Shown: positions 1-49,700 of the stretch, in pieces | Layout of the letters: the number at the start of each line of letters is the position of its first letter | How positions within the stretch are numbered: the stretch's first letter is position 1 | Assembly (NCBI GenBank): GCA_005656395.1 | Contig: SRSI01000044.1 | Span: 1,612,001 to 1,676,000, forward strand | Reading direction: 5' to 3' | From: Strongyloides papillosus | Taxonomy: Eukaryota; Nematoda; Chromadorea; Rhabditida; Strongyloididae | DNA: 64,000 nt | The notes under the pieces: generated by a model | Seen by the model: the letters and a program-made list of their open reading frames with translations, nothing else | Databases searched by the model: none | What the model was told of the DNA's origin: nothing | Made by a program: the position numbers and the translations under genes

Positions 1-603
1 AAACAATTTACTAACAAAGATAAGTTCAAATATTTTAATAAAAAAATAACAAAAAGCAAAAACTATTATTTAACTACACAAAGTATTAACAATTAAAAAT
101 ATTATTTTTGTATTTGTTTTTAATTTAAATATAAAGGTTATTTTTTACAATGTAGAAAAATGCGCATAATTTTAAAACTTTTCATAGGTTTAATTTTAAA
201 AAAAGACCGTTTTCAAAGACATTATAAAAAAAAAATTTGAGTTTTATATGAGTATAATTTTACAAAAAAATGCAATTTCTAACAACTTTAACTATTAAAG
301 CATATTAGAAAAACTACTATGATATGTTAATAAATGTTTTTTGTAAGAACATCTACAATCTTACTTAAAAATAACTTTCAATCTAATATTTTGGAATGTA
401 TTGCAAAAAACATCTTAAAATTTAAGATAAAAACAATATAGCAGAAAAATAAAAGATAATTTTGACAACTTTTCAATTATTGTTTTAATTTTTATGTACG
501 AAGTAGTTGAGATAAAATTAGTCACAAATAAAAAAAGTTCAAATTTTATTAAGTAGGAAAGATTTATTACATTTCACATTAAAACTTTCCCTTTTCCGTG
601 TAA
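1..603 (-). repeat. R3 interspersed repeat, copy A (cut by window start)
   Basis: This non-coding AT-rich sequence matches, nearly base for base and inverted, 21208-21800. More diverged relatives lie at about 28.6-29.6, 30.4-31.3 and 35.7-36.6 kb. The family ends in ACACAC-type inverted termini (intact in the 30361-31312 copy), and here the corresponding terminus is near 582-606. No open reading frame of note is present. It is probably a non-autonomous DNA element. Superfamily unknown. Confidence 0.6.
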
Positions 604-940
604 TTCTTTAAAATTATAAATATACTAAAATATTTAACAAAAGTAGAACTATTATTTTTTTAAATATTACATTAAATTAATGCCAATTATAACACAAAAA
701 AAAATTATATTCGCAATTTGTCTCACAATCTACTCTAACATAATTTTAATGCATTAAATGTGTGAAAAATTATACTATAAATTGCACAAGAAATAAATTT
801 TTACTAATTTGTCACCATATTTAAAATAAATTGCATTAAAAAACTATTAAACAATTGAAAATTATTATAAAAAGGTAATATAGGTTGAGATAATATGATG
901 TAAAATTTAAATAATATTTTATCTAGAAATAAAAATGCCA
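604..940. repeat. tRNA-Asn upstream flank shared by loci A and B
   Basis: This unannotated AT-rich flank is repeated inverted at 20871-21207. It ends ...AAAAATGCCA directly before TCACTATG (941-948), which is the unoccupied form of the 8-bp site duplicated around the MULE in locus B. It therefore serves as the empty-site reference for that insertion. Confidence 0.7.
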
Positions 941-948
941 TCACTATG
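941..948 (+). other. Empty target site of the tRNA-targeting MULE
   Basis: TCACTATG occurs once here, directly before tRNA-Asn nucleotide 1 (949). In locus B the same eight bases appear on both sides of the 4.7-kb MULE (16151-16158 and 20863-20870). Confidence 0.85.
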
Positions 949-1724
949 GCCTCCGTACACTCAGAAGAGAATCCTCACCTTAAGGTGATGATTTTAAAAA
1001 CATCACCTTGAGGTGAGGATTTTGTTTAGAATAAAGTATACAGGAAAAATGTCTTACGAAGGTGTAACACAACATTGGAATTATATATCAAGTTGTCAAA
1101 ACATTGTTATTTCGTAACTTTTTTCTACTAATTTTAACTTATTAATATTTCTATTTTAGGTGTAAATTAAGGAGTGCCGACTAATTATTTATAAATAGAA
1201 TAAACTACAGATAAAGATAAGTTTTTTTTTACTTAAAATTTAGGTATTTTTTAGGCAATGCATGGAATTGTTACTTATATTTTAAAATCAACAGGAATAT
1301 TCAAGTATACAAGTAAGTTATTGTTTCAGTTAACATTTATAATTGTTTCTAGTTTGCAGGATAGGTGAATCTCACTATTTAGCATGCAGGTACGATTTAT
1401 TACCAATCTAGGCAAGTTTTACCACTATATTTATATTTATTATTTATTGCTTTTGTTGTCATTATCTTTCTTATATTTAAAGTTTTAAATATTCATTAAA
1501 TTGTTATATCTTTATTTTATAATAAAAAATCTTAATTATTACTTCTAATTGTTGAAATATAGCTATAAATAAGAACATTGCTATAAACAGATGTTCTAAG
1601 GCATTTTATTGGGGAAAGGTATCCCTTTTGTGTTTTTTTAAAATCATCACCTCAAGGTGATGAATTGGTATACGCACAAAAATCGACGAAATCATCACCT
1701 TGAGGTGATGCTTTCTTTCTGAGT

Positions 1725-1864: not shown

Positions 1865-2580
1865 GGATACACGTAAAGTGTTCAAAACTTTTTGTCAAAA
1901 AACGCGATTTAGATCATTCCACGTTTTTTGACAAAAAATGCATCTCAGAAATTGCATAGTGAAATAATGCATTTCTACTATACAATTAATAAAATGCAAA
2001 CCTCAGTATTCTCGACTACCGAGAAACTGGATTTTATAAACCGACGACATTGGAAATGTACCAACCCTACACCTATTTCATTTCATTCACTTAAAATTTT
2101 TTTGTCACTTAAAAAAAAAACTAAAGTACACATAGTATATACGTTTCTCCAAAAAATGGTAAAAATTTTCTTCCTTTGTCTTTTTAAAAAATAAATAAAT
2201 TTTGTGTCTTTTTTTTCAAAAATATGAACATGCTTAAAGTAAAACTGTATAAACAAAAAAATATTGCATCAAAAATTTTTTACTTTAAATAATTTTTAAT
2301 ATTTTACTGTATCAGTTGAATTTTTTTAATAAATAATTCGTAGAATTTTCTACCAATTCTTTATATGAGGGCTAAACTATGCGTTGCTGGTTAAAGGAAG
2401 GCCACGGGTCAAGACTTATCAACAAATTGATAAAAATAGTGTGATTTAGATATTTTTTATTATTATACTTGTTAATACTCCATATTTTTAACCTGTTTTG
2501 CTAGCTACTCCTACAAAAATTTGGAGTTTCATGTATCACGGTGAATTGGTAAAAAACGTATTGTACATTTGACGTGTCAC
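1865..2580. repeat. D element, copy A
   Basis: This 0.7-kb non-coding repeat is found again at 15292-16004 (inverted), 38715-39423 and 39446-40110 (inverted), with a fragment at 53790-53950. One end reads GGTGACACGTC inward and the other GGATACACGTAAAG or GGTGCACGTC, a weak terminal inverted repeat. Inside are a hairpin of TTTTTGTCAAAAAACGCG type and a conserved GC-richer block near 2365-2425. The 88-codon frame at 1928-2194 is not conserved as protein between copies and is probably spurious. The outer end abuts half of a tRNA-Glu. Confidence 0.6.
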
Positions 2581-2581
2581 C

Positions 2582-2601
2582 AACCACTAGACTACATGGG
2601 A
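2582..2601 (-). pseudogene. tRNA-Glu 5' half, cut in the D loop
   Basis: On the minus strand the sequence reads TCCCATGTAGTCTAGTGGTT, matching nucleotides 1-20 of the intact tRNA-Glu at 37030 except one base (G9 to A). It stops in the D loop where the D element begins (GGTGACACG...). The matching 3' half is not next to it. Upstream of its nucleotide 1, six bases away, is the end of a short MULE-family element. Confidence 0.8.
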
Positions 2602-2607
2602 CGTTCC

Positions 2608-3879
2608 GAGGCATACCTATTTCTTCACTACCATAATTATACTGGTGGAGAAGTATGCATATATATATGACATGGTTCTGTAATAATATATTATGGTAGT
2701 GGAGAAGTATGCTATATATATATATACCTATTTCTCCACCATAGTATATTCCCATGAACAACTGATAAATCTAATCAGTATATTATTTTAAATGATAAAT
2801 AATTTCATAATTTAATGAGTTTTATTAAAAAAGTGTTGAAAATGTGGTATTAATTTTTGGTACATTACTCTTGTACTATAATAACATAAAGAAACTTCAT
2901 ATACTCTAAATAGACATCGTCTTTAATGATTTATAATTTGCATTAAATGGTTTGAAATATATTAAATTGAAAGGATTTTTTTTGAACAAATCATTTTGGT
3001 AGTGGATAGAGTGATAATTGTTATTTATCTGTATCATAAATGTAATTTTGATATCAAAAGTTATCATATAAACAAAATTAAATTTTTTATTTCACTTTAA
3101 AGTAGTTTTCCCCATCAATTTTTTATCTATTTCATAATTCAATGGTATACTACTAAAAAATTTTTTCACATTCTGTGATTCTTCAAACTCTTAAAAAATC
3201 TAGTAATTCGAAAGATAAAGTCATAAGAAATTACCAATTAATAAAATTAAAAAAATAAACTGATTAGAGAATATTGTTATATATCTAATATCTTTAATTT
3301 CTTATAATGTTGCATATTTTTTGTAAAAAATCATAACTATTGCAATATATATGGGTATATTTTAATAAATAAGTAGTTTTATGTTCACATCAATTATAAA
3401 ACATTAGAATACAATGGTGTTATTTTAAATAATTTGTATATGGGAGGAAAATGAAAAATCAAATTAAACAGTAAATATTTTCTTTCAATAATTAACAGTT
3501 TAAAAACAGTTTTTTTACACTTTCAACTATTTAATGCAAATTACTAAATTTTTATAAAAGAACTAATTGTCATAATCTAATGAAAAACAAAATTGTGTAA
3601 ATATCTTTAATCTTGAATTAACAGTAAGACATTATTGGTAGGAATTTATTGCAATATAATATTTATATAAATTTTAACTTTCAATTTTTTAATATTTTTT
3701 TATAAAATGTAATTGATTATTATTTATTAACATTCTCAATATTGTTTTTTAATAATTTAAACGAAAAAAACAAGGGATTTTGTAGTTTAAATGATAATGT
3801 CACATAATGTCACTTAATGACACATAATGTCACATAAAGTCACATAATGTCACTTCTTGTGGAGAAGTAGGACGCCCCC
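2608..3879 (-). mobile_element. Short non-autonomous MULE-family element (M1)
   Basis: This 1.27-kb element is the near-identical inverted partner of 33765-35044. Its ends match the 4.7-kb MULE: GAGGCATACC at 2608 and, reading inward from 3879 on the minus strand, GGGGGCGTCCTAC. Next to the tRNA-facing end are inverted GTGGAGAAGTA motifs. Next to the other end is a tandem array of about six TGTCACATAA-type repeats (3797-3857). No transposase is encoded. The flanking 8-mers (GACGTTCC left, CTTGAAAG right) do not match, so one flank has probably been exchanged by rearrangement. Confidence 0.8.
3797..3857. repeat. Subterminal tandem repeats, about 10 bp each
   Basis: Roughly six copies of a unit like TGTCACATAA/TGTCACTTAA lie just inside the GGGGGCG end. 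The same array occurs in 20780-20838 and 33789-33850. Repeats at this place in MULEs are often transposase binding sites. That role is inferred here. Confidence 0.7.
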
Positions 3880-15291: not shown

Positions 15292-16004
15292 GATGACACG
15301 TCACATGTACAATGCGTTTTTTACCAATTCACCGTGATACATGAAACTCCAAATTTGTGTTAATAGTACCTTGCAAAATAAGTTAAAATATGAAGCATTA
15401 GCAAATAAGATAATAAAAAAACATCAAAATCATACTATTTTTATCAATTTATTGATAAGTCTTGACCCGTGGCCTCCCTTTAACCAGCATCGCATAGTTT
15501 AGCCCTCATATAAGGAATTGGTAGAAAATTCTACGAATTATTTATTAAAAAAATTCAACTGATACAGTAAAATATTAAAAATTATTTAAAGTAAAAAATT
15601 TTTGATGCAATATTTTTTTGTTTATACAGTTTTACTTTAAGCAAGTTCATATTTTTGAAAAAAAAGACACAAAATTTATTTATTTTTTAAAAAGACAAAG
15701 GAAGAAAATTTTTACCATTTTTTGGAGAAACGTATATACTATGTGTACTTTAGTTTTTTTTTTAAGTGACAAAAAAATTTTAAGTGAATGAAATAGGTGT
15801 AGGGTTGGTACATTTCCAATGTCGTCGGTTTATAAAACCCAGTTTCTCGGTAGTCGAGAATACTGAGGTTTGCATTTTATTAATTGCATAGTAGAAATGC
15901 ATTATTTCACTATGCAATTTCTAAGATGCATTTTTTGTCAAAAAACGTGGAATGATCTAAATCGCGTTTTTTGACAAAAAGTTTTGAACACTTTACGTGC
16001 ATCC
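15292..16004. repeat. D element, copy B
   Basis: Inverted, near-identical copy of 1865-2580, with the same neighbour (tRNA-Asn 3' flank) on one side. On the outer side it meets the tRNA-Gln 3' half instead of the tRNA-Glu 5' half. No protein-coding content is supported. Confidence 0.65.
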
Positions 16005-16076
16005 GTTTTAGATAAAATTAATAAAAACATTTTAAAATAATTTCATGTAAGAATTGTGATTAAAAGCAAAAGTACG

Positions 16077-16079
16077 CGC

Positions 16080-16148
<69 letters not shown>

Positions 16149-16150
16149 GT
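16077..16150 (-). tRNA. tRNA-Asn(GTT), uninterrupted copy
   Basis: 74 nt with complete D, anticodon (GTT), variable and T arms, and a T-run downstream. Base 1 is A in this copy, opposite C72, whereas locus A has G1-C72. So the first acceptor pair is a mismatch exactly at the edge of the MULE target duplication. The other six acceptor pairs form. The autonomous MULE abuts its 5' end. Confidence 0.93.
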
Positions 16151-16164
16151 CATAGTGAGAGGCA

Positions 16165-16350
16165 TACCTACTTCTCCACTACCATAATTATACAGGTGGA
16201 GAAGTATGTCATATATATAAACATACTTCTCCACTAATATATTATGGTAGTGGAGAAGTATGTTATATATATATACATATTTCTCCACTAATATATTATG
16301 GTAGTGGAGAAGTATGTTATATATATATACATATTTCTCCACCATAGTAT
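16165..16350. repeat. Subterminal palindromic GTGGAGAAGTA repeats
   Basis: Multiple inverted copies of GTGGAGAAGTATG separated by TATATATATA spacers, forming several hairpins next to the tRNA-facing end. Similar blocks are at 2615-2755, 26872-26925 and 34915-35035. The 77-codon frame here is a by-product of the repeats. Confidence 0.8.
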
Positions 16351-16704
16351 TGTTCCATTAAAAATTAGTAAATATTATCATTATATTGCTTTAAATGATA
16401 AATTTAATCATAATTTAATAAGAGCTATTTATACAATAATTAACTATTTGAAAATAGTACTTTATTTTTAAAATTATTTAATGAAAATGATCAATTATAC
16501 ATAAACAACTAATTTTCATTTTTTTATATATATCATTATGATAAAATATTAAGTTGCTATTATTAAATAAGTTTATATTTGATACTGAAAAAACATTTAT
16601 ATATATTACTTAAAAAATCTAAAAACAACACTATTTTTACTAGAAATAAAAAATAAAAAACTTCAATTTTACCAGTTTTAACAACAATTATATATGAGAA
16701 ATAT

Positions 16705-19574
16705 TTAGCAGTCATTAAAGATTGCTCTTCTAACGGTTAAAATATCATCTTCATTTATACTCCAATTATCAAATGGAATGTTTTTTAAAAGATTATCTAC
16801 ATACAAACATACATATACTCCACAATCAAAACTATTTTTTTGACGAGGAATACCTTCTACATCATAAAAATTCCAATTATCAATATCAAGATGATTTTTA
16901 AAATGTTTTTTAAATTGTTCATGAGAAAAAAATTGTTTTTGTGAGCCTAACGGATCCATATAATATATAGATTTACCTGGAGAATAAAGTGACACAAGCA
17001 CCCAATGTACACCAGAAACAAACGCTCCAGAGGTATTTGCAACTAAAAAAACCCAGTCATACATAAGCCTTCCACTATTTACAATCATTTGAAATCCAGG
17101 TTCACATAGACTTAATGTATTTTTATTTAATGGATCAAAACAAATTGCTGAAGATATATGAGTATTCAATATATATGAACTCATCTCTGTACTTGGAAAT
17201 CTTCTTACTAATGATCTCATTATGTAATTTTCAATTTGAACGTCATTGATCCATTGTTTTCTGTATTCTAATGTTGATATGTCAATAATTTTTTTTGATA
17301 TATTCTGTGAAGACTCCTCATTTTCAATTATATATTTTTTAATTTGATTAATTGAACTAATTTTGTTAGGATAGGCATCCGAACAGCGATTTTTATCATA
17401 TTCAATGCGAGCTAAGTGTCGTTCATGTTCTTTCATTCTTTGTACACGTTGTGGAAGATATTTTGAGGCAGCTTTTCGACCCGGATAAATAATATTTTTT
17501 CTGGTATTTATTTCAAATTTTTTTTTCCCCGTTTGTCTTAGAATAGTAGAAGTATCCAGTTGAAGATTTTGTAAAGCTTTAACGAATTTTGAAAGTACTT
17601 GATTATGCCCAAGATAGATGTAGTTTGATAGTGAACTGTGCCATGATTCGATCAAATTTGTCGTTAAAATCTCTTCTGAATACTTAGAAAGCATCTTTGC
17701 GTATTCTTCAACAGCCCAATATTTTTGAAAATACTCTTCTACCAATGTCCATGATTTTAACTCGTCATCTTTAGCTAACTGTTTAATCTCTAGAAATATA
17801 TTTTGCCATTTTCCTATTATACGATCTGCAGGAAGGATGTATATTTGAACAAGACTTTGAATTTTTTGAAAGTATAAAGACATACGTTTTTTTTCAATAA
17901 TATAGACAGAAAAAAGTCCAACATCTTTAAGTTTATTGAATATATTTCTTTGATAATGAAAAACACATAATGATACAATTTCAGGATTATCGAAAAATTT
18001 TTTTAAGGAATTAATAACTGCCTGCTCTCTATCAACATACCAATGAGTTACATTCATTTGACAATTCAAAAATTCAACCTTCCTAAATATCCAATTCAAC
18101 ATTTTATTGTATGAAGATTCTTTTTTTGATTTCATTAAAGTATATACTAGGGGAATACTGATTTCTTCATCATTGCTTGTAAATGTACCTACGATAGTGT
18201 ATAATTGAACAAAATTCTTTGGTGTGTAATAAAAAGTGCCATCAGAAGTTATGTATTTACATTTTGATAAGATTCTTAAATTTTCATCAGTTGAAAAAAT
18301 TATTATATCACTTTCATCATAAAGACCCAAAAAATTTTCTTCTTCTGAATCAAGTGACGGAAAAAAACCAGTTTTTAATTGAATATTAAATTGTTCTTTT
18401 TCTGACTTATCATTAAGCCTATTGAATAAACGACGACGAAGATGATAATATCTTTTCATAAACGACAAAATTAGTGATGGTGGATATCCTATAGAGTTAG
18501 AAAATTTAATAATATCTTCTCTAAATTCTTGATATTTTGCAGCTGGTGAGAGAATTGTTCCACCACACCTTTGAGTAATTAAATTCTCCAAGTGAAATCC
18601 AAAAAAATCAGTAAAATTTATTTCATTACACCCAGGTCGATGATTTTTGTTTTCTAAAACAATAGTTCCAGACTTAATTTTACATGTAGCACATTTAACT
18701 AAATTATAATATAAAAACAATAAATATTATATGAAAACTTACTCGTTTCACTAACTTTAATTTTAGAACAGTTTGAACAGCGAAAATACCCAGTTGTAGT
18801 ATCGTCGAAACATTGTGGAAGTAATTTTTCATTTGCAACTTTTGTTAATGTAAAAGTATATCCTCTTAGATCAAGAATATCATTGGTCTTATTTGCTTTC
18901 ATAAATATAATATTTCTTCTTAATTTTGTGTTTAAACCACCAAAAATATAATCATCCTTGTCTATTAAACCAAAAATACTTAAAAAGTTTAACAAAAATG
19001 GTTTATTATCATATTCACTTAAATGTTCATTAATATTTTCATTATTGTTGTTTTCGAAAAAAATTGGTTCTAAAATTGGCATGGTATCCATACAATCATT
19101 ATCCTCCTTAGTGTTTACCAATTCAGAAGATATAGGTTCTTCCATTAATTCAGGAAATGCAGGTTCTTCTATTAATTCAGGAAATACAGGCTCTTCTATT
19201 AATCCAGGAAATATAGGTTCTATTAATTCAGAAAATATAGGCTCTTCTACTAATCCAAAAGATATGGGTTCCTCATTTTCAGATGAATATTGTTTTGTAT
19301 TATTTCTTTCAATGTGGTTAAAAGATGCCTCTGGTAAACAAGCAATTGGAGGTGTTGAAGGTTGAGAAGGTAGAGATCCAGAGATACTATTAACATTAGT
19401 TCTAATTATATCATAACAAGCTCTTAAGAATGTTATGTATGTAGGTGTTAAAGGTTCTCTTTCTTTCACAGTTCTCCAAAGACTTTTAAAATTTATGAGT
19501 TTTGGATTAGTTGATGTAATTAAGTATCCAATTTCATCTTTATTTAAACTAATTGGAATAAATTTCTTGACCAT
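16705..19574 (-). CDS. MULE transposase fused to Ulp1-like (C48) protease
   Basis: Two exons (19574-18743 and 18698-16705) join in frame across a 44-nt intron, giving 941 codons. Exon 1 has a short N-terminal domain, an acidic EEPxFPELI repeat region (about residues 95-150) and the start of a Cys-rich finger that is completed across the splice. The MULE domain follows with D430 (SDGTF), D500 (YVDREQ, before CVFHYQRN) and E628 (NLIESWHSSL). The C-terminus is a C48 cysteine protease with H842 (VHW), D859 (YMDPLG), Q897 and C903 (SFDCGVYVC). All catalytic residues are present, so the gene looks functional. MULE-Ulp fusions are known from plants and animals. Confidence 0.92.
18699..18742 (-). other. 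44-nt spliceosomal intron in the transposase gene
   Basis: GTAAGT...TTTAG on the minus strand. Removing it restores the reading frame and completes a zinc-finger-like CxxC pattern across the junction. It shows that the host has a spliceosome and tolerates very short introns. Confidence 0.85.
19133..19275. repeat. In-frame 30-bp minisatellite in the transposase
   Basis: About five units of a 30-bp repeat encode a ten-residue EEPIFPELI-type acidic motif. One unit has lost three bases, keeping frame. It lies in the linker between the N-terminal domain and the finger/DDE domain. Confidence 0.75.
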
Positions 19575-19680
19575 TTCTCTTCTTTTACATTTACTAGTTA
19601 TTACCTTAAAAATATGTTTAAAATACGTAAGGAAATTGATAGCTTACAAAAAAAAATACTGCGTGGAAAATATTATGTAA

Positions 19681-20779
19681 GAAACAATCTTTATATATAA
19701 AAAAAAACTATCTTAACCATTCAAACATTATCCCATAACTACATTTATTTCTCTTCCAGAATATCTTTAGTCTTTTTTGCCCTTGCGAAAAGATAGTTCA
19801 TAGTTCATAGTACATTCTCATCGTATAACTGGTGTTCAACTTCAATCATAATATAGTGGATGTGATTTTACTGGAACAACGCCTATAAAAAAAGCATATT
19901 AAAAATTCAACATAAGACTTTTGTTTAAAAAACCATTAGAAAAAATGTTTTTGAATGTAGGTAATCATTGATGCTCATTAATAACAAAAACTTAATGTTT
20001 ATCATTAGTAAATCGTTTTTAATATTCAAATATACATCTAATAGATTAATAAAAATTATAAACAACTACATTTGTACCTCTGTTCATGTTATCTTTTTAC
20101 GTTAGAGTGATTTATACCTTAACCTTCCCTTTGGACATTTAAATTTAAAAAGACTGCATCAAGAATGAAACCAATAAATCAGAATATATGTGTATGTAGA
20201 TCTAAAGATGTTACAAAGGTTTAAAAATTAATGAAAAAATAAATAAAGAGCCTGCTTACCTTAGTTAAAATAGAAATTTATCGAATTCAAAATTGCTTCT
20301 TATCAATTCCACATAATTTTAATTAGTATGTTAATAAAACTAAAATAAGATAAATATTATTATAATGGTAAAAAAAAGTAAAAGAAAATTTAAAATAAAG
20401 AATGACTATAAGATGACATTTTAGATCTTATATATTAAATTTTGTCTCCTCTTTTTAACTATGAAATAGTATGAGAAAATAAAAATCGTTAATCTGCTAA
20501 GATAGATATAAATTTCTTATTGCTTTATTTAAAAAAAAACAACTATATGCTATAAAACAATGAAAAGCAAGATGAAATAAAAATGTTTTATCTTTAATTG
20601 ACAATATGATACTAATGATGGGGCATTTATTGCAATATAATATAAATATAAGATTCAACTTTTAATTTTTTCAATATTTTTTTTATAAAATGTAATTGAT
20701 TATTATTTATTAACATTAAAAATATCATTTTCTAATAATTTAAACGAAAAAAACAAGGAATTTTGTAGTTTAAATGATA
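19681..20779 (-). other. MULE 5' untranslated/internal region
   Basis: The transposase promoter should lie here, but no clear promoter is recognised. The last 240 bp (about 20620-20862) is shared with the short elements 2608-3879 and 33765-35044. Confidence 0.5.
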
Positions 20780-20838
20780 ATGTCACATAATGTCACTTAA
20801 TGACACATAATGTCACATAAAGTCACATAATGTCACTT
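20780..20838. repeat. Subterminal tandem repeats of the intact MULE
   Basis: Same TGTCACATAA array as in the two short elements, next to the GGGGGCG end, which always lies away from the tRNA. Confidence 0.75.
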
Positions 20839-20862
20839 CTTGTGGAGAAGTAGGACGCCCCC

Positions 20863-21207
20863 CATAGTGATGGCATTTTTATTTCTAGATAAAATATTAT
20901 TTAAATTTTACATCATATTATCTCAACCTATATTACCTTTTTATAATAATTTTCAATTGTTTAATAGTTTTTTAATGCAATTTATTTTAAATATGGTGAC
21001 AAATTAGTAAAAATTTATTTCTTGTGCAATTTATAGTATAATTTTTCACACATTTAATGCATTAAAATTATGTTAGAGTAGATTGTGAGACAAATTGCGA
21101 ATATAATTTTTTTTTGTGTTATAATTGGCATTAATTTAATGTAATATTTAAAAAAATAATAGTTCTACTTTTGTTAAATATTTTAGTATATTTATAATTT
21201 TAAAGAA
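20863..21207. repeat. Distal TSD and locus B copy of the tRNA-Asn flank
   Basis: 20863-20870 is the distal 8-bp duplication of the MULE. The rest repeats 604-940 inverted, showing that this flank was next to tRNA-Asn before the MULE arrived. Confidence 0.8.
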
Positions 21208-22330
21208 TTACACGGAAAAGGGAAAGTTTTAATGTGAAATGTAATAAATCTTTCCTACTTAATAAAATTTGAACTTTTTTTATTTGTGACTAATTTTATC
21301 TCAACTACTTCGTACATAAAAATTAAAACAATAATTGAAAAGTTGTCAAAATTATCTTTTATTTTTCTGCTATATTGTTTTTATCTTAAATTTTAAGATG
21401 TTTTTTGCAATACATTCCAAAATATTAGATTGAAAGTTATTTTTAAGTAAGATTGTAGATGTTCTTACAAAAAACATTTATTAACATATCATAGTAGTTT
21501 TTCTAATATGCTTTAATAGTTAAAGTTGTTAGAAATTGCATTTTTTTGTAAAATTATACTCATATAAAACTCAAATTTTTTTTTTATAATGTCTTTGAAA
21601 ACGGTCTTTTTTTAAAATTAAACCTATGAAAAGTTTTAAAATTATGCGCATTTTTCTACATTGTAAAAAATAACCTTTATATTTAAATTAAAAACAAATA
21701 CAAAAATAATATTTTTAATTGTTAATACTTTGTGTAGTTAAATAATAGTTTTTGCTTTTTGTTATTTTTTTATTAAAATATTTGAACTTATCTTTGTTAG
21801 TAAATTGTTTAAAATAATGATCTTCATTAAAATGTCAACAACATCACACGGAATCTTTACTTAAAGTAAATTATTTTATAAAATAAAAAACTAGTTATAC
21901 TTTAAGATAAGCATAATATCATAAAAAGTATCAAGATTAAATAAATAATACATAAAAAAATAAGTTATTGGTGATGCTTACTTTAGAAAACAATGTGGCG
22001 ATTCTATCTTACACTTTCATTAAACGTACTATAAAATAATAAAAAGACATAAAGATATTAATTAACCTACTTTTTATTTTAAGAAATAGAAAAAGGTGGT
22101 ATTATGTGGTACAATAAAAAAAATTTAGGCTTATATACAAATTCACAAGTGATAACATAATTGTCATAAAATATTTTTTCACTATTACATTAAAATGCCA
22201 AATACATATATTTTTGTGAAAAATGACAAACTTTATGCAACAATATAATATTTTGCGTTGTTTAAAACTTTTTTTCTCACTTAGTATTTGAAAAATTGTT
22301 AAATTCTTTGTGCAGAAGCGAAAAATAAAA
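21208..22330 (+). repeat. R3 repeat, copy B
   Basis: Inverted copy of 1-603, extending past the window edge of copy A. It starts at TTACACGGAAAAGGG and runs to about CTTTGTGCAG. Non-coding. Confidence 0.55.
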
Positions 22331-26783: not shown

Positions 26784-26857
26784 AGCCTCATCCCGGGCTC
26801 GAACCGAGGACCTTATGATTAGAAGTCATACATTCTATCCAACTGAACTAATGAGGC
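26784..26857 (-). tRNA. tRNA-Arg(TCT)
   Basis: 74 nt. Acceptor GCCTCAT/ATGAGGC, D arm TAGTTCAGTTGGATAGAA, loop with anticodon TCT, T arm GGTTCGAGCC with one T-G pair. The discriminator base is T, uncommon for this tRNA. A MULE-family terminus starts eight bases upstream of nucleotide 1. Confidence 0.9.
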
Positions 26858-26865
26858 GATCCAGG

Positions 26866-26996
26866 GTATCTACCTACTTCTCTACCACCGTAATTATACT
26901 AGTAGAGAAGTATGGTTATACGTATCTTTATCCACTAGAGTTTTTTTAATAGAAAAATGGTAAATATTATCACTATATTATCTTAGATGAGTTTAA
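26866..26996 (-). mobile_element. MULE-family remnant facing tRNA-Arg
   Basis: Sequence starting GTATCTACCTACTTCTC aligns with the tRNA-facing end of the 4.7-kb MULE, including CCGTAATTATACTAGTAGAGAAGTATG and the adjoining AAATATTATCACTATATT. It is cut at 26997 by a P repeat. The eight bases between it and tRNA-Arg (GATCCAGG on the plus strand, 26858-26865) would be the target duplication, but the distal copy is lost. Confidence 0.7.
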
Positions 26997-32984: not shown

Positions 32985-33765
32985 CCGTTCTCGCCGAGTA
33001 CACCTTAACTAGCCAAATTAAAACGCGTCAAAACTCTTGATTGGAATTTAGTTTATATGAATGTTTTTTTAAGAATCTTAACATTTTATGTACATTTTAA
33101 GGCTTATTCTCGGAAATGAACTTTATTTTCAATAACGTAGCTTAACTCAGAATGATAATATTCAATTTTTTGATCATTTTGTCTAGATAAATGCAAATAA
33201 AAATTCTTGTAAAAGTAAAAATAATATTTTTTTCTAAATGTGGTACAATTCATCAAATGTATATTAATACATTTAATGGCATCTTTAATTGTAATACCCA
33301 TAGTAAAAGACACAATGTTTTAGAAAACAAGATTATTTTATGAAAAATGATTTCATAAACTTATATATAATACATAAAATATATTTTTTAACATTGATTT
33401 TAACAAAGAATTCTTCTTACAACAAACATTTTGTTCAAAAGATAAAAAGTGTATGAAGTGATATTTTTAAGTTTATTCATAAAAATTAAGTTGGTAGTTC
33501 ACTTTTAACAGAAATCTCTTTAAATTTAATTAAAAAGTGTGTTTAAAACAAAAATAACTGATAAAGCATATCATACAATTATTTTTCTATTAATCACGTA
33601 GTTTTTAAGATAAATATAGTAATGATAATATAAATTATCATAAATAACCCTTAAAAGTATAGAAAAAAATGCCAAAACTATATAAAAACACTATATAAGC
33701 TAAATTTCAGTCAAGAGTTATGACGCGTTTTAATTTGGCTAGTTAGGCTGATCCCGTTCTCGCCG
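32985..33765. mobile_element. 757-bp MITE with 10-12 bp TSD upstream of tRNA-Tyr
   Basis: The direct repeat CCGTTCTCGCCG (32985-32996 and 33754-33765) flanks 32997-33753. Inverted termini contain ACTAGCCAAATTAAAACGCG, about 33 bp in all with a few mismatches. A long direct repeat suggests a MULE-type element, but its ends differ from both other MULE families. The 69-codon minus frame inside (33104-33313) has no known domain. The duplicated site overlaps the sequence that originally bordered tRNA-Tyr. Confidence 0.8.
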
Positions 33766-35044
33766 GGGGCGTCCTACTTCTCCACAAGAAGTGACATTAT
33801 GTGACTTTATGTGACATTATGTGTCATTAAGTGACATTATGTGACATTATCATTTAAACTACAAAATCCCTTGTTTTTTTCGTTTAAATTATTAAAAAAC
33901 AATATTGGAAATGTTAATAAATAATAATCAATTACATTTTATAAAAAAAATATTAAAAAATTGAAGGTTGAAATTTATATAAATATTATATTGCAATAAA
34001 TTCCCATCAATAATGTCTTACTGTTAATTCAAGATAAAAGATATTTACTCAATTTTGTTTTTCATTACATTATGACAATAAATTCTTTTATAAAAATTTA
34101 GCAATTTGCATTAAATGGTTAAAAGTATAAAAAAACTATTTTTAAACTGTTAATTATTGAAAAAAAATATTTACTGTTTAATTTGATTTTTGATTTTCCT
34201 CCTATATACAAGTTATTTCAAATAATACCATTGTATTCTAATGTTTTATAACTGATGTGAACTTAAAACTATTTATTTATTAAAATATATCTATACATAT
34301 TATAATAATAATGATTTTTTACAAACAATATGTAACATCATAAGAAATTAAAGCTATTAGATATATAACAATAACTATATTCTCTAATCAGTTTATTTTT
34401 TTAATTTTATTAATTGGTAATTTCTTATGACTTTATCTTTCGAATTACTAGATTTTTTAAAAGTTTGAAGAATCACAGAATGTGAAAAAATTTTTTAGTA
34501 GTATGCCATTGAATTATAAAAAAGATCAAAAATTGATGGAGAAAAATACTTTAAAGTGAAATAAAAAATTTAATTTTTTTAATAAGGAAACTTTTGATAT
34601 GCAAAATTACATTTATGAGACAAATGAATAACAATTATTACTCTATTTACTAGCAAAATGATTTAATTTAAAAAAAATCCTTTCAATTTAATACATTTCA
34701 AATCATTTAATGCAAATTATAAATCATATAAAGACAATGTCTACTTAGAGTATATGAAGTTTCTTTATGTTATTATAGTACAAGAGTAATGTACCAGAAA
34801 TTAATACCACATTTCTAAAATTTTTTTAATAAAACTCATTGAATTATGAAATTATTTACCGTTTAAAGTAATATACTGATTAGATTTATCAGTTATTCAT
34901 GGGAATATACTATGGTGGAGAAATAGGTATATATATATAGCATACTTCTCCACTACCATAAAATATTAGTGGAGAACCATGTCATATATATATGCATACT
35001 TCTCCACCTGTATAATTATGGTAGTGGAGAAGTAGGTATGCCTC
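33765..35044 (+). mobile_element. Short MULE-family element (M2) abutting tRNA-Tyr
   Basis: 1280 bp, flanked by an exact 8-bp duplication TTCTCGCC (33757-33764 and 35045-35052). Ends are GGGGGCGTCCTAC and GTAGGTATGCCTC, as in the 4.7-kb MULE. Interior is near-identical (inverted) to 2608-3879 and encodes no protein. The right duplication ends on the first base of tRNA-Tyr. Confidence 0.92.
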
Positions 35045-35051
35045 TTCTCGC

Positions 35052-35138
35052 CCAACCATAGCTCAGTTGGTAGAGCGGAGGACTGTAGATTTAGTTGCTG
35101 ATATCCTTAGGTCACTGGTTCGAATCCGGTTGGTTGGA
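35052..35138 (+). tRNA. tRNA-Tyr(GTA) with 14-nt intron
   Basis: Acceptor CCAACCA/TGGTTGG, D arm TAGCTCAGTTGGTAGAGC, anticodon GTA, then an intron at 35089-35102 (ATTTAGTTGCTGAT) at the normal 37/38 position, followed by the 3' anticodon stem TCCTT and T arm GGTTCGAATCC. TTTT follows at about 35144. The mature length is 73 nt. An intron in tRNA-Tyr is nearly universal in eukaryotes. Confidence 0.95.
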
Positions 35139-46739: not shown

Positions 46740-49700
46740 TCCCATAATGAGATATTTAGACTTTGAACTTAAAAACAGGATTATGCTGGATCTACCTTTA
46801 ACTACCCTTCCTATTTCAAAAGATAACATAAAAAAAAGAAATTACCAAAAAATTCAATCTTAAACAAAGAGATTTTCCAAGTGCAATAAGAGACCCACTC
46901 ATAAATGAAGAAGTTCTTTCAAGATCATTAATCCCTAACCAACTTAGAAAATTCAATTTCAATAAAAAGATTCAAACTGGTAGAGAAAGAAATGAGATTA
47001 CAAGTAGCAATGATATTAATTTTCAGAATAACCAAAATGAAAACCAAACATGCACTCCAACTAAGGAAACAATAATAATGCCCCAAGTTTTAAATAATAC
47101 ACTAATAAATTATAGCTTTAATGTAGATAATAATTAGGATAAAATCCATGAAACTATTATAGGAAAAAAATCTTATGCTGATAAAGTTAAAGAAAATATT
47201 AAGAGTAAAAATAAAAGAGTGAAAACTGATAAAAAGCAAAAAGGAAAGGTTGCTAATTCACATAAAATAAAACACAAACAAAACCATTTAAAGACCAAAG
47301 CCGAATAGAAAGATGGAAAATCATGGAGAAAACTAATGGTTCCATATTCAGATATAATATTCACAAATGGACTCCAATGAATGAAATCGATAAAATATTA
47401 GAATCTAAACTTGCAAACTACAATAAAGTATGAAAACAAGCTAATGTATCTGAAAATAAAGCTATTAACAATTGGCGTAAAGCAACGAAAGAACTAAAAA
47501 TAACTGCACGTATTTTGAAATCCTATGATCATACAAAAATGGGCATAGATGGTATGAAAATTGATAATATAATTAAGATCAAATGAGCGAGAAATAAAAC
47601 ATCTAGATTTGTAGATAAAGTTAAAAAACTTATCTTGCGAAAAAACTCCCGCGATAAAAAAGATAAAGCTAATGCCAATTACAAACTTAGAAAAATAGTC
47701 CAATTCTGTAAAATAAAAAGAAATTATAAAAAAATAGAAAACATTGACCAAATTCTTTATTTTAATAATGAAAAAATTAAAAATTTAGACAAAAGAATAG
47801 AGATGGTACATAAAAAGAATAACGATAATAAAATAAGATTTAATTTCAAATCCAAACCTTTCTTTAAAAGTTTAAATTTAGACAAAAACCAAAAAACAAA
47901 CATCCCAAATGAAACAATGGAAGACTATCTTACCGATCTTTTTAACGAAGAAGATACCAAAGATAACGGGTTGTTAAGACAATGGTTAAATGAAACTCAG
48001 TTTGAACAACAAAATATTGTTAATATTTGGAATGAAGAATTATTTGAGAATGAGTTGAAATATAGTAAGAGATGGAAGGCGGCAGGTTTAAACGGCATAT
48101 ATTTAGCTTTATATAAACAATTACCCAGTGCCAAAATGTTTCTTAAGAATTGGTGTTTGGGGGTTCTTAAAGGTAAAATCAAAGTATCCAAATTTAACGT
48201 TGTTAGTAAAACATTTGAAATATTTAAATCTGGAGATGCCAACCTCCCACAAAACTAACGATTCATTAACGTATTAAACAGTCACTTTAAAATTCTGTCA
48301 CAAATGATGAATGAAATGATAAGAGATCATCTTATTAAGGTTATGCCAAAAGAACAACAAGCAAATTAAAAAACAAAAATGGATTACATGATGGTACCAT
48401 CTTTAACCGACTTCTTGAACAATCTCATGGTAGCGAGGGAAACCAATTGAATCAAGCATAGATTGATTTCCGTGAAGCTTTTGTCACAATATCACACTAA
48501 AAATTAAAACTAATGCTTTCTAAATTAGAGGTTGATAAAAGAATTTTAAACATCATCTTCTCATCAATGAAATATTAGTTATTTAAACTAAATTCTTCTA
48601 AATCAAAAACCTGGATCCATCTCAAAAAAGCATTTACCAGGGTGATAATATGAGTCTAACGTTATTCATAGTCTCAATTTTACCTTTAAGTTACATTTTA
48701 AATTAACAAATAACAATTTTCCTGTCTCCAAACATCAGCCTAAATCATGTTAAATTCTATGACGACATCAAACTTTTTGCAAAAACTCCCGATGATCTCA
48801 ATATTCTTGTATCATTGGTTGAAAAGTTCGGACAAGAGATAGGACTATTGACAAATACAAAAAAATGTACCTATAGTTTAAGTGAAATTCTAAATTCTTC
48901 TCAATTAGAAGAAATAGCATATGCAGATTACAATGAACTTAAAGCCACGTATAAGTATCTTGGTATTGACGAGGACCAATATGGGTATAATATGGAAGAA
49001 AATGTTGAAAGAATATACGAAGCAATCGAGAAATTCTTGAATTTAGTTTTCTCGATTCCTTTATTCATAGGTGATATGATAAAAGCTATAAACACTTGCA
49101 TTTTACCAAAAGTTTCCTACATTTTCAGCCATCAAGGAGAACCAACTCTAAGAAATAAAATTGCACAAAAAATTGACTTAATTATACGTAAGTTTATGAA
49201 TGAACATAAAATTAAAATGTCAAAAATAACAAATGCCCGTCTATATCTTACAAATAAGAACATGGGGGTTAAGTCTAGAAAACACACAAATTGAACTTGA
49301 CAAAATCAACCTGAAACTATATGTCCACTTACACTATTCTAAATTCTTTAATGATTTAAAAGATAAGTTAATAGGGTTTAAAAACCTATTTAGTAACCTA
49401 GCCAACATATATGGTCTTAAAATAGAGTACGAAGAAGACCATCTTATAATCAAAGATATAATCTTTGAATCTGAAAAAAAATGTAATAAATATATAGTTG
49501 AATCCATTGATAAAGTTGATGAACCATATTGGTTAACAGAATATAGTAAAAATAGAACTTACCCAGCAACTGTAGTTTCACAAAAATTATTCACTCTTGG
49601 ACATGGTATAATGTTCTATCACCAAAATTGTATAACAATATAACTATGATTCAAGAAAGCATTTATCCTTAACTCAATAACCCTGCTAATTCAAACAGCA

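What the first reader, a model, noticed from the sequence alone, without database searches (positions are those of the whole stretch)
16151..20870. MULE that integrates in one orientation exactly at tRNA 5' ends
Four family members have the same terminus (...GTATGCCTC side) facing the 5' end of a tRNA: Asn (16159-20862), Tyr (33765-35044), Arg (26866-26996) and a half tRNA-Glu (2608-3879). The gap from element to tRNA base 1 is 8, 7, 8 and 6 bases. In the two intact cases the 8-bp duplication occupies positions -8 to -1, within a base. Different tRNAs and different TSD sequences (TCACTATG, TTCTCGCC) rule out one duplicated event for Asn and Tyr. Ty3, Ty1 and Dictyostelium TRE/DGLT retroelements target Pol III genes, and Dada DNA transposons target RNA genes. 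I know of no MULE with fixed orientation at the Pol III start. Recruitment through TFIIIB/TFIIIC is inference.
Basis: partly seen in the sequence, partly recalled or inferred. Interest (0 to 1): 0.93.

Follow-up and report, generated by a model that had tools for sequence, protein, structure and literature searches.

The report
Transposons homing on tRNA gene starts
In what is likely a Strongyloides roundworm genome, most copies of two families of Mutator-like DNA transposons sit 3 to 8 bases in front of many different tRNA genes, in both orientations, so they are likely steered there by the machinery that transcribes tRNA genes rather than by a DNA sequence.

Summary
A tRNA-blind search of the host genome (58 Mb; likely Strongyloides papillosus) for the element's two ends gives 18 units at 17 loci. 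At 16 of 17, one end lies 5-8 bp from base 1 of a tRNA gene (13 whole, 3 half), eleven amino-acid types. Target duplications differ, and the 5 bp upstream of the tRNA carry almost no shared sequence. The GAGGC end faces the tRNA at 13 loci, the opposite end at 3 (Phe, Val, Lys); merged for duplicates 10:3, p = 0.09. A second MULE family (transposase core 32% identical, other termini) does the same: 23 of 27 copies lie 3-6 bp from tRNA base 1, the 8-bp duplication straddling it. Family 1's transposase ends in a SENP/Ulp1-like domain, family 2's in a ubiquitin-hydrolase-like domain. Maize Mu shows no such preference in print; Ty3, TRE5-A and Dada are the nearest analogues. Most likely the transposases are tethered to the Pol III initiation complex (inferred). 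New variant of a known kind, high interest.

The parts
16159..20862 (-). Full-length family-1 MULE, 4,704 bp; GAGGC end (16159) faces tRNA-Asn, GGGGGCG end at 20862; strand given is that of its transposase gene
16151..16158 (.). Target duplication copy 1 (TCACTATG in the tRNA sense), positions -8 to -1 of tRNA-Asn
20863..20870 (.). Target duplication copy 2, identical 8/8
16076..16150 (-). tRNA-Asn (GTT), whole by ARAGORN; base 1 is A where the paralogue at 949 has G
18743..19574 (-). Transposase exon 1 (predicted): N-terminal part with CxxC zinc-like motifs at residues 266 and 280
16705..18698 (-). Transposase exon 2 (predicted; 44-bp GT-AG intron at 18699-18742; 941 aa in all): MULE DDE core and C-terminal SENP/Ulp1-like domain with His, Asp, Gln, Cys kept
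33765..35044 (.). Short family-1 copy without a transposase match, 1,280 bp, GAGGC end facing tRNA-Tyr
33757..33764 (.). Target duplication copy TTCTCGCC
35045..35052 (.). Target duplication copy TTCTCGCC, positions -7 to +1 of tRNA-Tyr
35052..35138 (+). tRNA-Tyr (GTA) with 14-bp intron
2608..3879 (.). Short family-1 copy, GAGGC end 6 bp from a half tRNA-Glu (about 2581-2601, minus strand); no duplication; rearranged locus
26866..26996 (.). Truncated, diverged family-1 GAGGC-side end, 8 bp from tRNA-Arg (TCT) base 1; not found by the pattern searches
26784..26857 (-). tRNA-Arg (TCT)
941..956 (+). Natural empty site: single TCACTATG directly before tRNA-Asn bases 1-8, in an inverted duplicate of the Asn locus without the MULE

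Best explanation
Most copies of two families of Mutator-like (MULE) DNA transposons in this genome lie with one end 3 to 8 bp in front of tRNA genes, in either orientation, most likely because their transposases are guided to the RNA polymerase III initiation complex rather than to a DNA sequence. Shown: the ends, the 8-9 bp target duplications, the near-fixed distance to base 1 of many different tRNAs, both orientations, whole tRNA genes next to most copies, and transposases that join a MULE catalytic core to a SENP/Ulp1-like (family 1) or ubiquitin-hydrolase-like (family 2) domain. Inferred: the staggered cut centres near -4 (family 1) or near the first base (family 2) because the transposase docks on a Pol III factor (TFIIIB being the first candidate) bound at a fixed place; the internal A and B boxes stay whole, so the tRNA gene likely stays transcribed and the site is a safe harbour. 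Which part of the protein does the targeting is unknown.
For: Family 1: end patterns found without reference to tRNAs give 18 R + 18 L ends = 18 units at 17 loci, 16 with a tRNA base 1 at 5-8 bp (gap 8: 8 loci, 7: 5, 6: 1, 5: 2). Duplications 8/8 or 9/9 at 10 of those 16, 7/8 at 2, poor at 4. A gap of 5-9 bp is expected for 8e-4 of positions in the tRNA-rich DNA held; even 11 of 15 would have p = 2e-31, and with Leu and Thr duplicates merged the count is 12 of 13. Targets: Leu, Trp, Phe (two sites), Val, Glu, Asn, Tyr, Ser, Thr, Lys, Arg-ACG and, as a fragment, Arg-TCT. Bases -5 to -1 carry -0.09 to 0.22 bits each, A-box positions of the tRNA up to 1.8. Family 2: 45 ends in 27 copies; 23 of 45 ends, i.e. 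23 of 27 copies, face a tRNA at 3-6 bp, 20 of these tRNAs called whole by ARAGORN; 12 of 16 tRNA-facing two-ended copies have an exact 8-bp duplication. At C5:929578-934138 a family-2 copy sits between a family-1 end and tRNA-Trp, so one target took two different MULEs. Eight other repeat copies of the window: nearest tRNA 139-8,943 bp. Domains. Ty3 precedent: 0-20 bp upstream, needs TFIIIB (PMC7175516, passages).
Against: No protein contact was tested; nothing separates TFIIIB, TFIIIC, Pol III itself or an open DNA bubble. Misses: family-1 locus C24 (exact duplication, but no tRNA called by ARAGORN or by Rfam at E <= 1); a diverged copy at C57:141 kb has no tRNA at its L end and a tRNA-Arg only about 1.1 kb beyond its interrupted R side; family 2 misses 4 of 27, one of them with an exact duplication 50 bp from a tRNA-Ile-like sequence. 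Duplicated loci inflate counts (Leu x4, Thr x2; in family 2 Lys, Ile, likely the Thr single ends). Three family-2 pairs are 8.6, 13.8 and 19.8 kb long and were paired by their duplications. The held DNA was fetched around the elements, so the background rate is only a stand-in; a full tRNA map was not available (one search scored 63 of 3,467 candidates). Several partial matches to the middle of the element (C21-C25, C37, C8:89 kb) were not examined.
Confidence: 0.72

Rival explanations
1. The transposase itself reads the tRNA gene sequence (the A box, positions 8-19) and cuts a fixed distance upstream, as Dada transposons read their RNA-gene targets.
For: The only shared target sequence is inside the tRNA (A-box positions up to 1.8 bits); both proteins carry CxxC zinc-like motifs, seen by eye, that could bind DNA; several Dada lineages target nucleotides 8-13 of tRNA genes (PMC8869645, passages).
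Against: Any set of tRNA genes shares the A box, so its conservation is no evidence of recognition; the gap varies by 1-3 bp within a family, more than a strict sequence reader would give; Dada duplications lie inside the RNA gene and resemble each other, here they are upstream or straddle base 1 and differ.
Confidence: 0.2
2. Insertion is random or merely follows open chromatin, and only copies in front of tRNA genes survive selection in a compact genome.
For: tRNA 5' flanks tolerate insertions; the genome is compact (58 Mb).
Against: Selection would allow any distance upstream of tRNAs and any gene-free DNA; the spacing is held to 1-3 bp at 16 of 17 loci, whose long matches are 87-98% identical to the Tyr copy.
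Confidence: 0.04
3. A few insertions were spread by segmental duplication.
For: True in part: the four Leu loci score 0.90-0.96 in far-flank similarity, the two Thr loci 1.0.
Against: No other pair of the 16 family-1 loci exceeds 0.75, and tRNAs and duplications differ; Leu-a and Leu-b differ at two bases in both duplication copies at once, which fits two insertions.
Confidence: 0.02
4. The enzymes sense the unwound or bent DNA of a transcribing Pol III start site rather than a protein (not exclusive of a tether).
For: The cuts lie at the likely start; both orientations occur.
Against: Would predict other Pol III genes among targets; none of 11 family-1 loci scanned, the unexplained ones among them, matched a family other than tRNA above its gathering score. 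Family-2 misses were not scanned.
Confidence: 0.1

Closest known systems
Ty3 (yeast LTR retrotransposon)
   Different: Retrotransposon integrase; here DDE MULE transposases with 8-9 bp duplications
Dada DNA transposons
   Same: DDE transposons aimed at tRNA and other small RNA genes (PMC3706591, PMC8869645, passages)
   Different: Insert inside the RNA gene, 6-7 bp duplications of related sequence; Dada-U6 and Dada-U1 lack terminal inverted repeats; families keep to one or a few RNA genes
TRE5-A and DGLT-A of Dictyostelium
   Same: Upstream of tRNA genes; TRE5-A can use in principle all of them and its ORF1 protein binds TFIIIB subunits (PMC5633606, passages)
   Different: Retroelements, about 50 bp and 13-33 bp away
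Maize Mu and other MULEs
   Same: MULE transposase; Mu inserts near transcription starts
   Different: Mu follows Pol II starts and near rRNA/tRNA genes resembles random sites, with an exception for somatic Mu that the authors lay to larger numbers (PMC7337890, passages); nematode Tm1 shows no target consensus (PMC3169594, passages)
Plant MULEs with a captured Ulp1 domain (Kaonashi/KIU)
   Same: MULE carrying an Ulp1 domain (PMC13317346, passages)
   Different: There Ulp1 lies in a separate gene of a non-TIR MULE, function unknown, no tRNA link in the passages seen

Membership tests
MULE (Mutator) superfamily | MULE-type transposase with D, D, CxxH, E in order | tested here: met
   Pfam PF10551 1e-6 family 1, over its cut-off; 5.7e-6 family 2, just under it, 27.1 of 27.6 bits; family-1 motifs D430, D500, C522-H525, E628 of the predicted protein; family-2 motifs read by eye in the protein
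MULE (Mutator) superfamily | About 8-11 bp target duplication (range recalled) | tested here: met
   8-9 bp, exact at 10 of 16 tRNA-facing loci in family 1 and 12 of 16 in family 2
MULE (Mutator) superfamily | Terminal inverted repeats | tested here: met
   Short and imperfect in family 1 (CCTACTTCTCCAC shared by both ends); 66 bp at 86-88% between opposite ends in family 2
Dada superfamily | Insertion inside the RNA gene, 6-7 bp duplication | tested here: not met
   Upstream or straddling base 1, 8-9 bp, varied sequence
Dada superfamily | Dada-type transposase | not tested
   No Dada profile was run
Works like Ty3 | Near-fixed position at the start of many tRNA genes | tested here: met
Works like Ty3 | Dependence on TFIIIB | not testable with these tools
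   needs an integration assay

The most novel reading that the evidence does not exclude
The C-terminal SUMO- or ubiquitin-protease domain is the homing device: a branch of MULEs reads SUMO/ubiquitin marks on Pol III machinery at tRNA genes and so turned the superfamily's Pol II start-site habit into near base-pair-precise Pol III targeting, swapping one Ubl-protease domain for another as it diverged.
Probability: 0.15. Interest if true: 0.92.

Novelty: new variant of a known kind. Interest (0 to 1): 0.78.

Why it matters
It would put precise Pol III-gene targeting, known from retrotransposons and, inside genes, from Dada, into the large MULE superfamily of cut-and-paste transposons, in two families of one animal genome. 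It gives a paired natural experiment: two related transposases with different Ubl-protease tails and targets about 4 bp apart, so tail swaps could reveal how a DNA transposase is steered. It might also lead to a gene-safe integration system for animals, and may be one reason why the tRNA-rich stretches seen here are so rearranged.

Tried and rejected
Fixed orientation: rejected. Segmental duplication as the cause: rejected for the set, kept for Leu and Thr. R-like ends dropped before counting, 3 of 21: C43:23199 (by eye it shares sequence beyond the end with two C33 repeats, so it is another repeat), C1:2791702 (old relict, 72% identical, L-type end, no ARAGORN tRNA in its 3-kb locus), C1:3570598 (no match to the short element there; no ARAGORN tRNA). 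The C24 flank looked tRNA-like by eye; Rfam gave no tRNA at E <= 1, so it counts as a miss. The C6:1579881 relative (36% identical, Ulp1-like piece, two stops inside) could not be bounded; a tRNA-Ile 3' half, named by eye, lies about 1 kb beyond its end, behind another element, and is not counted. A MULE-like piece at C39 (469 aa, no protease domain matched) has no ARAGORN tRNA in its 3.5-kb locus: a single control. Each transposase found one relative at E <= 0.001, both named Strongyloides papillosus (word-limited searches), so spread beyond this species is open.
Full report
What the window holds. The element at 16159-20862 has ends GAGGCATACCTACTTCTCCAC (R, at 16159) and GGGGGCGTCCTACTTCTCCAC (L, at 20862), flanked by the 8-bp duplication TCACTATG. 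Its R end is 8 bp from base 1 of tRNA-Asn. A 1,280-bp relative lies 7 bp from tRNA-Tyr (33765-35044, duplication TTCTCGCC), a third 6 bp from half a tRNA-Glu (2608-3879), and a truncated R end 8 bp from tRNA-Arg-TCT (26866). A natural empty site exists: 1-949 is the 100% reverse complement of 20862-21810, and 1725-2458 is 98% complementary to 15416-16144; there TCACTATG occurs once, directly before the tRNA, although that tRNA is itself broken by another element.

Host. The genome is 58.2 Mb in 79 unnamed contigs. In a word-limited search of 5.8 billion proteins the one relative at E <= 0.001 is a Strongyloides papillosus protein, 98% identical over 67%; for the family-2 transposase likewise one, 90% over 74%. 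I take the host to be S. papillosus or very close; this rests on names given by a source.

The enzyme. Two ORFs join by a predicted 44-bp GT-AG intron into 941 residues in one frame. They carry a MULE core (Pfam PF10551, 1e-6) with D430, D500, C522-H525 and E628 in order and a C-terminal Peptidase_C48 (7e-13) that aligns to SENP1 with a His, an Asp, a Gln and a Cys in place (that these are the catalytic residues is recalled).

Genome-wide test of family 1. The two end patterns, allowing 3 mismatches, gave 21 R-like and 18 L-like places; reversed-pattern controls gave 0. Three R-like places were dropped (see Tried and rejected). The other 18 + 18 ends pair into 18 units at 17 loci, one of them a composite of two units on C24 whose outer ends share an exact duplication. 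Flanks were read outward from each end. At 16 of 17 loci tRNA base 1 lies 5-8 bp from one end: Leu (4 loci), Trp, Phe (2), Val, Asn, Tyr, Ser, Lys, Arg-ACG, whole by ARAGORN; Thr (2) and Glu, half genes. The R end faces the tRNA at 13, the L end at 3 (Phe C5, Val, Lys). Merging duplicated Leu and Thr loci and adding the Arg-TCT fragment gives 10 R to 3 L, binomial p = 0.09; 11:3 gives 0.057 and 12:3 gives 0.035 if more events are held apart. A preference may exist, a rule does not. Outside the pattern count, a truncated copy at C5:934138 is also R-facing, 6 bp from tRNA-Trp once the family-2 insertion between them is discounted. Two diverged copies (C14 near 47 kb and 662 kb, 76-84% identical) have tRNA-Arg-ACG about 8 bp from one end and tRNA-Glu 7-9 bp from the other; a third at C57:141 kb has none at its L end and tRNA-Arg about 1.1 kb beyond its interrupted R side.

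Second family. Among transposase relatives, a 984-residue ORF occurs nearly identically on C5 and C14 (97.8% over 4,552 bp), with a MULE core and a UCH domain (PF00443, 1.5e-12); its match to solved ubiquitin hydrolases is weak (best E 9e-4). The C14 copy spans 1221049-1225600 with duplication CAAGCCGC, of which three bases precede and five belong to tRNA-Ile. Its terminus pattern occurs at 45 places, controls 0; the flanks of all 45 were read. 23 of 45 ends face tRNA base 1 at 3-6 bp; as 18 pairs and 9 single ends, 16 of 18 and 7 of 9. 20 of the 23 tRNAs are called whole by ARAGORN, three (Lys, Ile, Pro; the last named by eye) are half genes. Targets: Lys, Ala, Val, Trp, Ile, Thr, Leu, Gly, Pro, Tyr. 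Both kinds of end face tRNAs. Among the 16 pairs the duplication is exact in 12, 7/8 in two, 6/8 in one; the Trp-C61 pair scored 2/8 in the script but matches over 7 bp when shifted by one base (flanks). Far flanks show Lys-C10 a duplicate of Lys-C5 and Ile-C57 of Ile-C14; Trp-C61 and Trp-C14 are 0.89 similar. Misses: C5:792017-792957 (exact duplication, tRNA-Ile-like sequence 50 bp away), the C5:1156431/1158912 pair, and single ends C6:1570138 and C5:1184197.

What sets the site. In the tRNA sense, family-1 bases -5 to -1 carry -0.09 to 0.22 bits each and family-2 bases -3 to -1 0.01 to 0.36, whereas tRNA positions 8, 14 and 18 carry about 1.8. So position relative to the gene, not upstream sequence, is held. 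That is how Ty3 behaves (PMC7175516, passages) and unlike Dada (passages). I infer a tether to Pol III factors. Yeast Rpc53 is sumoylated, and Siz1, Slx5 and Cdc48-3 are found enriched at tRNA genes, above all when Pol III is defective (PMC6128692, passages), which makes the Ubl-protease tails a testable homing device; that is speculation.

Effect on the host gene. 13 of 16 tRNAs next to two-ended family-1 copies are whole by ARAGORN. Since A and B boxes are internal (general knowledge), they likely remain transcribed.

Known or new. Six searches listed no MULE with tRNA targeting, judged by titles and abstract starts; four of the lists were cut (20 of 291, 25 of 28, 12 of 8,560, 12 of 37). 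In four MULE papers the word tRNA does not occur. For maize Mu a test at rRNA and tRNA genes found a random-like distribution, apart from a feature of somatic Mu laid to its larger numbers, and the authors call the habit specific to Pol II (PMC7337890, passages). Subscription papers and Repbase were not searchable here, so priority is not proven. I file it as a new variant: a MULE by its transposase, ends and duplications, working like Ty3.

Noticed in passing
window 957-1724: A different 768-bp element (ends CACTCAGAA, apparent 2-bp duplication) sits inside tRNA-Asn; of 18 further copies whose flanks were read, 10 lie inside tRNA genes (Thr, Lys, Val, Glu, Arg, named by eye) near the A box. 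It looks like another tRNA-gene-targeting DNA transposon family.
   Followed up: partly
window 2557-2581 and about 3891: Terminus GGTGACACGTCAAATG of a third element inside tRNA-Glu, perhaps with a 7-bp duplication GTGGTTG; 19 places genome-wide; of 6 flanks read, 5 are inside tRNA genes (Glu, Thr x3, Gly, by eye), 1 is not. Dada-like by its target, membership untested.
   Followed up: partly
L007 (C14:1213394) and L140 (C10:1593492): Further elements beginning CACTCAAA (Thr) and CACTCAAAG (Lys) interrupt tRNA-Thr and tRNA-Lys next to MULE copies, so tRNAs flanked by a MULE are hit again by other elements.
   Followed up: no
C24:688687-694877 (L010, L030, L011, L031): Two family-1 units enclose 3.8 kb of other DNA and the outer ends share an exact 8-bp duplication: it seems to have moved as a composite transposon.
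   Followed up: no
window 1-949 with 20862-21810; 1725-2458 with 15416-16144: Large inverted duplication of the tRNA-Asn locus, one copy with the MULE and one without.
   Followed up: partly
L081 (C13:118340-121840): Another MULE-like match near a sequence that reads by eye like the Cys box of a ubiquitin hydrolase: perhaps a third MULE with a Ubl-protease piece.
   Followed up: no
L061, L062, L065, L067 (C14 about 46951-48287 and 662326-663370): Diverged family-1 copies abut tRNA genes at both ends (Arg-ACG and Glu), unexplained unless the two tRNAs once lay head to head or copies recombined.
   Followed up: no
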